IMG/VR virus record: IMGVR_UViG_3300023240_000069
Location: 1 to 32,245 of that record
Reading direction: 5' to 3' (one strand)
Origin: a virus
DNA: 32,245 bases
A model generated the notes under the pieces. It saw only the letters and a list, made by a program, of their open reading frames with translations, did not search any database and had not been told where the DNA came from. The stretch's first letter is position 1, and each line of letters starts with the position of its first letter. Both the position numbers and the translations under genes were made by a program. Positions 1 to 30,862 of this stretch are shown one piece after another.

Positions 1-4
1 ACCG

Positions 5-307
5 ATGGTAGGGCAAGGCGTATGGCTAACGATTATACCGGAGGGCGTTACACCGGCGTTTGAGTTGGACGAAACAAGGCTTTTAGGTGTGTATGACATT
101 ATGGGATACGAAGTTATGGAAACCGAAGGCATGGGCTATCAGCTATTCAATACAAAGAATTTGCCAGAACCTTTGACAGGCAAAAAGTCTGAGGGGATCT
201 ATCACGAAACACGCTGGAACGGGCGATTGGGGAAGGATTGCCGGATAACGTTACATCCATACGGTGTTCCCGCACCTCCGGCGTGCACCCTGAAGAAAGC
301 ACCTTAG
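5..307 (+). CDS. Hypothetical early protein (possibly 5'-truncated)
   Basis: This open frame of about 100 codons ends in TAG at 305-307. I do not recognise the family. The protein is mixed alpha/beta in composition, with no membrane segment and no zinc or nucleotide-binding motif, and its C-terminus is rich in proline and basic residues. The ATG at position 5 is only four bases from the window edge, so no ribosome binding site can be seen and the true start may lie upstream. The stop codon falls inside the first copy of a 53-bp hairpin element that recurs 1.1 kb downstream. It is co-directional with the early operon and is probably an accessory gene of the same transcript. Confidence 0.6.
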   Translation: MVGQGVWLTIIPEGVTPAFELDETRLLGVYDIMGYEVMETEGMGYQLFNTKNLPEPLTGKKSEGIYHETRWNGRLGKDCRITLHPYGVPAPPACTLKKAP

Positions 308-29419: not shown

Positions 29420-29429
29420 CCCTGCGTTG
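29420..29429. repeat. IS target-site duplication, left copy
   Basis: CCCTGCGTTG flanks the left inverted repeat; the same 10 bp follow the right inverted repeat at 30853-30862. Ten bases is within the range known for ISAs1-family elements. Confidence 0.9.
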
Positions 29430-29441
29430 CAGGGTAATCGC

Positions 29442-30664
29442 TTACCGATTAATCCCAGTTAAATCAATTCCAAGGACTTTAAAAAGAAATGTTTTATCCC
29501 ATCCACACTTTTTCCGCTTAGCCGCAATGCCCAGTTTCGAGGGTTCTTGCTTGAGTAAACTCGTTGCAAGGTGCCTAAATACAGAGACGTTCTCAGCTCC
29601 ACTACCTTTGCGAATCCTGCTGAGATCTTCTCGGAAGGCTACGTCTAATACCCAGTGGAGGCCGTTTTCAACAGACCAATGTCCGCGTTTATACTGTGCA
29701 TACGCCTCGGCAGTACAATGTTCAATGCTACAAATATCGTAGTGATAATTTACAGTAGTTTTATCGCCTACCTGCCTGCGACTGACACACATGCCAAGAC
29801 AAGATAACCCTTTGAAGTGATGATTTTGCTTGATGTATTCTATATCGTGAATCACATAGTACTCACGGATTTCCATTCGTCCATGACTGTTATCAAGTGT
29901 TCTATGATAGCGCTTTTGCTGCTTCAACAGCTCTTTTTCCTCTGGGTTTATATCGCTTATCAGCTCGTCAAACAGCAGCACTGTATCCTGGCATAACGTC
30001 TTTTGATTATCTTTTAGAGCAAGGACATAATCGGCTTCCTGCTTAATAATCTGCTCAGCTATTTTCTTTTGAGTACCCATCGCATCGATCGTGATCACTG
30101 CATTTTTCAAACAGAGTTTCTTTAACAATTCAGGTATAGCAGTTATTTCATTACTTTTCTCTTCTGTCGCTAACTGACCTAAAACAACCCTAGTTTCTCG
30201 TGCCCATGCGCTTACGACATGATAGACTTAAAGTTTCAATCCACGCACCCACACGGGCTAGTTTCTCGTGCCCATGCGCTTACGACATGCAATGCTTTTT
30301 TTCCATTAGCTTTATCTGCAGAGCCGCATAATGTTTTCCCATCGATGGCTATTTGTCGCCCAGATATTTTTGTGTCCAAGTAGGCAACCCATTCCATAAA
30401 AGCCTCATGGATTCCTTCGGGTTCCAAGCGCCCCAGTACGTCTCCGAACACATCATGGCTAGGCACACCAAACGGAAGCTCTAAAATATCTTTGAGCCAT
30501 TCCTCGTTAGAGTTACCCCATTCTTGTATATCCGTGTAGCCATCGGCCCCACAAAGTGTGCCCAATACTGAAAGTACTAGGATATCAATTAGTTTATGTT
30601 TCAATCCATTTCCTGTTCTATAGTCCGGTATTTTTTCAAAGCAAGTTTTCAGTGAATCAATCAT
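29442..30664 (-). pseudogene. ISAs1-family DDE transposase, disrupted by a 68-bp lesion
   Basis: The gene is in two pieces. The 5' part (30664 to about 30258) includes the first catalytic Asp in AIDGKTL. The 3' part contains ITIDAMGTQ (second Asp), ALKDNQK, and the region WSVENGLHWVLDVAFRED with the catalytic Glu. Between them, a 36-bp insert and a second copy of 32 bp shift the frame and create a stop. If one 32-bp copy and the 36-bp insert are removed, the frame runs without a break to give 384 residues, normal for the family. So the protein was intact until this one event. The upstream region holds GGGGAG and a plausible promoter. Confidence 0.9.
30190..30289. CRISPR. Single CRISPR-like repeat-spacer-repeat unit inside the transposase
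   Basis: Two perfect 32-bp direct copies (30190-30221 and 30258-30289) flank a 36-bp insert (30222-30257). The outer bases differ on both sides, so the duplication is exactly 32 bp. The insert's last 25 bp (30233-30257) read, on the minus strand, CCCGTGTGG then GTGCGTGGATTGAAAC, the distinctive 3' end of type I-C CRISPR repeats, which are normally 32 bp with spacers of about 34-36 bp. The first 11 bp of the insert (30222-30232) would be adjacent spacer sequence. Size and layout match one Cas1-Cas2 integration. A chimeric assembly is the main alternative. Confidence 0.5.
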
Positions 30665-30685
30665 TTTAAGTCTCCCCGATGTCAG

Positions 30686-30714
30686 TGTATAGTCTGGTTT
30701 AGACTAATCGACAA
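30686..30714 (-). promoter_or_regulatory. Probable transposase promoter
   Basis: On the minus strand, TTGTCG (30714-30709), 17 bp, then TATACA (30691-30686), about 20 nt before the transposase start. The inverted repeat AGTCT/AGACT (30691-30705) lies in the spacer and may form a hairpin or operator. Confidence 0.5.
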
Positions 30715-30797
30715 CGGATTTATTCTCAAGTAGCAACTCTGTTGGATGAATATCCATTAACGAAAGAATCGCTCGACTTCTGTATTCAATCTATCAT

Positions 30798-30825
30798 CTA
30801 AAAGCCTATTAGAACAGGCTTTTAG
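30798..30825. terminator. Terminator-like hairpin near the IS right end
   Basis: A perfect 10-bp inverted repeat (CTAAAAGCCT at 30798-30807 and AGGCTTTTAG at 30816-30825) with an 8-nt loop lies between the right IS end and the transposase promoter. Such structures often block outside transcription from entering a transposase gene. Confidence 0.55.
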
Positions 30826-30852
30826 AGCGAATTTCCGTAAGCGATTACCCTG

Positions 30853-30862
30853 CCCTGCGTTG
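30853..30862. repeat. IS target-site duplication, right copy
   Basis: CCCTGCGTTG, identical to 29420-29429, directly follows the right inverted repeat. Confidence 0.9.

What the first reader, a model, noticed from the sequence alone, without database searches (positions are those of the whole stretch)
30190..30289. CRISPR-unit-sized duplication inside an IS transposase: possible ectopic spacer integration
The transposase is broken by exactly one lesion. A 32-bp segment of the gene is duplicated perfectly and a 36-bp foreign sequence lies between the copies. Cas1-Cas2 adaptation duplicates its target repeat (about 32 bp in type I-C) around a new spacer (about 34-36 bp), so the geometry fits one integration event at a non-CRISPR site. 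The insert supports this: 25 of its 36 bp look like the 3' part of a type I-C repeat and the other 11 bp would be the start of an array spacer, so the captured DNA may itself come from a CRISPR array. The duplicated target shows weak likeness to a repeat (GTCG at one end, GGG in the middle, GAAAC near the other end). Off-target spacer integration has been seen experimentally, but a natural footprint that inactivates a transposase in a phage would be novel. An assembly chimera joining IS and host-array reads is a real alternative.
Basis: partly seen in the sequence, partly recalled or inferred. Interest (0 to 1): 0.88.

Follow-up and report, generated by a model that had tools for sequence, protein, structure and literature searches.

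The report
CRISPR-array fragment integrated into phage IS
A mobile element carried by a bacteriophage is broken by a 36-letter scrap of bacterial CRISPR memory flanked by a perfect 32-letter duplication, which looks like the scar of the bacterial memory-writing enzyme working at a wrong place in the phage's own DNA.

Summary
A 32-bp stretch of an ISAs1-family transposase gene (30190-30221, 30258-30289) is perfectly duplicated around a 36-bp insert. This is the only lesion in an otherwise complete IS, which has a perfect 10-bp target duplication. Homologous transposases have the 32-bp segment once and lack the insert. The same 100 bp occurs in two further IMG/VR contigs from other metagenomes.

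The insert is CRISPR DNA: 25 of its 36 bp equal the 3' part of a genuine 32-bp type I-C repeat (Parabacteroides distasonis), followed by 11 bp of would-be spacer. I-C arrays read here have 32-bp repeats and spacers mostly of 32-37 bp, so the duplication has repeat length and the insert spacer length. The insert ends inside the repeat and the duplication has no flanking TTC PAM, which argues against array/phage recombination or an array-loop misassembly. Contig L102 shows that contrasting anatomy.

Best explanation: one off-target Cas1-Cas2 integration of an array-derived prespacer into the IS. The target's likeness to a repeat is not supported. Donor array, host and reads are unknown, so an artefact is not excluded. 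Off-target integration is already known experimentally; a phage recipient and an array-derived prespacer would be new.

The parts
29420..29429 (.). Left target-site duplication of the IS, CCCTGCGTTG
   Evidence: identical to 30853-30862
29430..30852 (-). ISAs1-family insertion sequence, complete, with terminal inverted repeats CAGGGTAATCGCTTAC..., carried between phage genes
   Evidence: inverted repeats, target duplication, Pfam
29442..30128 (-). C-terminal transposase piece (DDE_Tnp_1, PF01609); this listed ORF starts downstream of the lesion
30190..30221 (.). Copy 1 of the duplicated 32-bp transposase segment
   Evidence: single copy in homologues
30222..30232 (-). 11 bp of insert that would be the first 11 nt of an array spacer (minus strand TTTAAGTCTAT)
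   Evidence: follows the repeat's ...GATTGAAAC end on the minus strand; source not found
30233..30257 (-). 25 bp of insert identical to nt 8-32 of the type I-C repeat GTCGCACCCCGTGTGGGTGCGTGGATTGAAAC
   Evidence: P. distasonis I-C locus L083, 3 of 14 repeats exact
30258..30289 (.). Copy 2 of the duplicated 32-bp transposase segment
30236..30664 (-). N-terminal transposase ORF (PF13808), ending in a stop inside the insert after 142 aa
30853..30862 (.). Right target-site duplication of the IS, CCCTGCGTTG

Best explanation
An intact ISAs1-family element transposed into this phage (inferred from what is shown: a complete element with a perfect 10-bp target duplication). [quoted passage not shown] Instead of the leader-end repeat, the integrase attacked a 32-bp stretch of the transposase gene, one strand at each end; gap filling duplicated the 32 bp around the insert (inferred). 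The +68-bp frameshift broke the transposase and the allele spread with the phage (shown: identical in three contigs). No function is claimed; it is a scar.
For: Exact 32-bp duplication with unambiguous ends and 36-bp insert. The insert is 25 bp of an authentic I-C repeat plus 11 bp. I-C repeats are 32 bp; spacers of exactly 36 nt make up 1/13, 2/44, 5/69 and 14/81 of spacers in four I-C or I-C-like arrays. Duplicated segment single in all homologues. Identical lesion in two other contigs of other metagenomes. No microhomology at the insert/copy-2 junction, where the donor repeat context can be inferred. Such duplications are otherwise nearly confined to arrays. Off-target Cas1-Cas2 integration is established in vitro (PMC6895254) and in vivo (Nivala 2018, as cited in PMC11788318).
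Against: Donor array and host not found. No reads. The target does not resemble a repeat beyond 13/32. Both target 5' bases are C, whereas off-target sites of a type II-A enzyme favour G (PMC6895254). The repeat-side end of the insert would be preceded by CAC in the donor, not a TTC PAM. Known off-target sites tend to resemble leader-repeat junctions; none is evident here.
Confidence: 0.68

Rival explanations
1. Assembly artefact: IS reads and host-array reads were joined, for example through a repeat-spacer-repeat loop in the assembly graph.
For: Contig L102 shows what such a loop would give: an IS transposase segment X of 34 bp next to TTC, then a complete 32-bp I-C repeat, then X again. Contig B (3300022851) looks hybrid elsewhere, with two terminase/portal sets.
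Against: The window has the opposite anatomy: duplication of repeat length, insert with an incomplete repeat ending mid-repeat (CACGGG|CTAG), no TTC beside the duplication. A loop or shared k-mer join needs a sequence shared between IS and array at the junctions, and none is seen. Identical in three contigs.
Confidence: 0.15
2. A staggered break in the phage DNA, filled in to give 32-bp duplications, with capture of a random array fragment by end joining or template switching, without Cas1-Cas2.
For: Fill-in plus fragment capture can give duplication plus filler DNA in general (own knowledge). The target shows no repeat likeness.
Against: It must hit by chance the repeat length of the very system the filler comes from and that system's spacer length. 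No microhomology at the testable junction.
Confidence: 0.1
3. Recombination between the IS and a spacer in a host array that targets the IS.
For: Spacers against transposases exist (L102).
Against: It should leave a complete repeat next to the homologous segment and a TTC PAM; neither is present. The 11 bp are not a variant of the IS: in frame they hold a stop and match 4 of 11 positions (by inspection).
Confidence: 0.05
4. A phage-borne solitary repeat that acts as an RNA anti-CRISPR (Racr).
For: Solo type I-C repeats are common in viral contigs: about 50 with a GTCG-type start among 139 non-array matches. RacrIC1 is functional (PMC10651486). The repeat sense strand lies in the transposase transcript.
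Against: Seven 5' bases are missing. The -12.5 kcal/mol hairpin of the full repeat falls to a 3-bp stem. The other solo repeats with this start have no flanking duplication apart from L102 and array edges. Promoter and acr neighbours were not examined.
Confidence: 0.02

Closest known systems
Non-canonical (off-target) spacer integration by Cas1-Cas2, Nivala, Shipman and Church 2018 (10.1038/s41564-017-0097-z; not held, known through PMC11788318, PMC9456107 and recall)
   Same: Repeat-length duplication of a non-CRISPR site around a spacer-length insert
   Different: Here in a phage-borne IS, with a type I-C signature and a prespacer cut from a CRISPR array; observed in metagenomes, not under Cas1-Cas2 overexpression
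Canonical type I-C adaptation (Cas4-Cas1-Cas2)
   Same: 32-bp duplicated unit; insert length within the natural spacer range
   Different: Target is a coding sequence without leader or repeat likeness; no TTC PAM on the testable side
Viral solitary repeat units / RNA anti-CRISPRs (Racr), PMC10651486
   Same: Type I-C repeat sequence in a phage genome
   Different: Truncated, hairpin lost, inside a transposase gene, flanked by a 32-bp duplication
ISAs1-family insertion sequences
   Same: Pfam domains, inverted repeats, 10-bp target duplication
   Different: This copy carries the 68-bp CRISPR-unit-like lesion

Membership tests
Off-target Cas1-Cas2 spacer integration | Target duplication of the length of the system's repeat | tested here: met
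   32 bp exact; I-C repeats 32 bp
Off-target Cas1-Cas2 spacer integration | Insert of the system's spacer length | tested here: met
   36 bp; 1/13, 2/44, 5/69, 14/81 spacers of exactly 36 nt in four arrays
Off-target Cas1-Cas2 spacer integration | Empty site in relatives (single copy, no insert) | tested here: met
   Gap-free alignment of 14 homologous loci across the site; homologues are only 43-51% identical, and no allele of the same IS without the lesion was found
Off-target Cas1-Cas2 spacer integration | Target resembles a leader-repeat junction or repeat (a tendency in other types, not an absolute requirement) | tested here: not met
   8/32 or 13/32 matches; 5' bases C/C
Off-target Cas1-Cas2 spacer integration | Identified prespacer donor with a PAM | tested here: inconclusive
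   25-bp part matches a I-C repeat; donor array not found; no PAM on the repeat side
Off-target Cas1-Cas2 spacer integration | Cas1-Cas2-dependent formation | not testable with these tools
   Needs experiment; host unknown
RNA anti-CRISPR (Racr) / solitary repeat unit | Complete repeat with processing hairpin | tested here: not met
   7 nt missing; stem reduced to 3 bp
ISAs1-family insertion sequence | DDE_Tnp_1_assoc + DDE transposase, inverted repeats, 8-10-bp target duplication | tested here: met
Array/protospacer recombinant or assembly loop | Complete repeat flanked by spacer-length copies next to a PAM | tested here: not met
   Repeat truncated, copies 32 bp, no TTC; contrast L102

The most novel reading that the evidence does not exclude
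The host's adaptation machinery wrote a piece of its own CRISPR array into an infecting phage: reverse adaptation, with the phage as recipient. Such events could seed repeat fragments in viral genomes and might be one origin of viral solitary repeats and mini-arrays.
Probability: 0.5. Interest if true: 0.75.

Novelty: new variant of a known kind. Interest (0 to 1): 0.58.

Why it matters
If true, Cas1-Cas2 mutates the genomes of infecting phages in nature, inactivates a gene by spacer-sized insertion, and can take its own array as prespacer source. It gives a searchable signature (repeat-length duplication around a spacer-length insert containing repeat DNA) to measure how often adaptation goes astray, and a testable route by which viruses could gain CRISPR repeats.

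Tried and rejected
Donor array: 25-nt pattern of spacer start plus repeat start absent from 84,980-species genome contigs; best plasmid and phage hits match mainly the repeat; none of the viral contigs with this repeat core continues with the 11 bp; 297 genomes of the phylum of the Desulfobacula relative had no exact 25-mer, and one of 300 genomes of the phylum of the Lachnospiraceae relative had one copy, not read in context. Host: transposase relatives are mainly Desulfobacterota and Clostridia at 43-51%, portal protein relatives are Bacillus phages at 25-27%; neither names a host. IS in phage and plasmid records: nothing close. Sample identity: IMG/VR metagenome numbers not found in papers; I suspect Ace Lake, Antarctica, from memory only. 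Internal origin of the insert: the IS has GTTTCAATCCA at 30598-30608, but only 11 bp match, against 25 for the I-C repeat. Origin from mature crRNA: the insert spans the repeat across the expected Cas5 cut, so it is not a processed crRNA copy (established knowledge of I-C processing). Nivala 2018 full text was not held.

Full report
What is there. In the window a 32-bp segment, CTAGTTTCTCGTGCCCATGCGCTTACGACATG, is present twice (30190-30221, 30258-30289), identical, 68 bp apart. The 36 bp between the copies are ATAGACTTAAAGTTTCAATCCACGCACCCACACGGG. Neither boundary can slide by one base. The copies lie in a transposase gene on the minus strand: the N-terminal ORF (30236-30664) matches DDE_Tnp_1_assoc, the C-terminal ORF (29442-30128) DDE_Tnp_1, the domain pair of ISAs1 elements. 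The IS runs 29430-30852, with terminal inverted repeats and a perfect 10-bp target duplication CCCTGCGTTG. The joined flanking sequence AAATGCCC...GGGCATTT suggests it landed in a terminator hairpin between phage genes (by inspection).

Single lesion. Joining the flanks in a script, with one 32-bp copy kept, gives a 384-aa open frame that aligns with 373-381 aa of homologues at 43-46% identity. Across the site (HVVSAWARETRVVLGQ) 14 homologous loci align without a gap and have the segment once. The extra 68 bp shift the frame, and translation stops inside the insert.

Not one assembly's accident. Exact search of IMG/VR finds the duplication in two more contigs, 3300022848_000022 and 3300022851_000059, both with two copies 68 bp apart and 100% identical over at least 26.6 kb to the window. 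No contig with one copy was found. The contigs may come from related samples, so they are not fully independent biology, but they are separate records. Contig B differs beyond the tail fibre and carries a second terminase/portal set, so it may be hybrid there.

The insert is CRISPR DNA. On the minus strand it reads CCCGTGTGGGTGCGTGGATTGAAAC + TTTAAGTCTAT. The first 25 nt equal nt 8-32 of GTCGCACCCCGTGTGGGTGCGTGGATTGAAAC, a repeat of the type I-C locus of a Parabacteroides distasonis plasmid with cas3-cas5c-cas8c-cas7c-cas4-cas1c-cas2. Near relatives lie in I-C loci of Peptoclostridium acidaminophilum and Nitratidesulfovibrio vulgaris. Repeats there are 32 bp and spacers mostly 32-37 nt; 36-nt spacers are 1/13, 2/44, 5/69 and, in a spirochaete array with a similar repeat, 14/81. 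The duplication thus has the repeat length and the insert a spacer length of the system from which the insert comes.

Mechanism. Cas1-Cas2 joins the two ends of a prespacer to opposite strands at the two ends of a repeat; filling the gaps duplicates the repeat (established). At a non-CRISPR site the same reaction gives what is seen here. Off-target integration is shown in vitro for a type II-A enzyme (PMC6895254) and in vivo in E. coli (Nivala 2018, cited in PMC11788318 and PMC9456107). The captured piece runs from the middle of a repeat into a spacer, so it came from an array or a copy of one.

Tests that went against or were neutral. Its 5' bases are C on both strands, while repeats begin with G and off-target sites of the type II-A enzyme prefer G. 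In the donor the repeat-side end would be preceded by CAC, not the TTC PAM of type I-C (TTC: abstract of PMC8406640). The donor array was not found.

Contrast case. Survey of viral contigs for I-C repeat cores found many complete solitary repeats without flanking duplications, and one instructive exception, L102. There a transposase segment of 34 bp, directly after TTC, is followed by a complete 32-bp repeat plus one base and then the same segment again. That is the anatomy of protospacer-repeat-spacer, as expected from an assembly loop or recombination with an array. The window differs on every point: duplication of repeat length, truncated repeat, no PAM. This makes the array-loop artefact unlikely for the window.

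Not an RNA anti-CRISPR as it stands. The complete repeat folds at -12.5 kcal/mol with a 7-bp stem; the truncated one keeps a 3-bp stem.

Order of events (inferred). The clean target duplication and otherwise undamaged transposase suggest that the IS moved in intact and was hit later, in the phage; the alternative is a host copy that was already broken and moved with transposase supplied in trans.

Verdict. Observation confirmed; interpretation mostly right; the likeness of the target to a repeat is not supported; artefact reduced but not excluded without reads. It is a new variant of a known kind, of fair interest because the recipient is a phage element and the donor an array.

Noticed in passing
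L102 8729-8829 (contig IMGVR_UViG_3300032053_000217): An IS3-like transposase gene (PF13276) carries a 34-bp segment next to TTC, a complete 32-bp type I-C repeat plus one base, and the 34-bp segment again: protospacer-repeat-spacer, either an assembly loop or recombination with an array.
   Followed up: partly
L098 2968-2985, L105 3136-3153, L112 2819-2836 and about 45 other viral contigs: Complete solitary type I-C-like repeats (about 32 bp, many with hairpin stems kept by compensating changes) without flanking duplications: candidates for RNA anti-CRISPRs.
   Followed up: partly
L080 1-6980 (contig IMGVR_UViG_3300022851_000059): The contig joins a second, different terminase (apparently with an intein-like insertion), portal and capsid set to the window's phage within the tail-fibre gene; the record may be a hybrid of two related phages.
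   Followed up: partly
window 1-220 and L078 1-220: The window's start matches the end of the longer contig, so the phage genome is circular or circularly permuted, about 41 kb.
   Followed up: partly
L078 5546-5619: A possible phage tRNA gene with a four-base anticodon call (ggca).
   Followed up: no
window 30598-30608: The IS itself holds GTTTCAATCCA, 11 bp shared with the I-C repeat end, probably by chance.
   Followed up: partly
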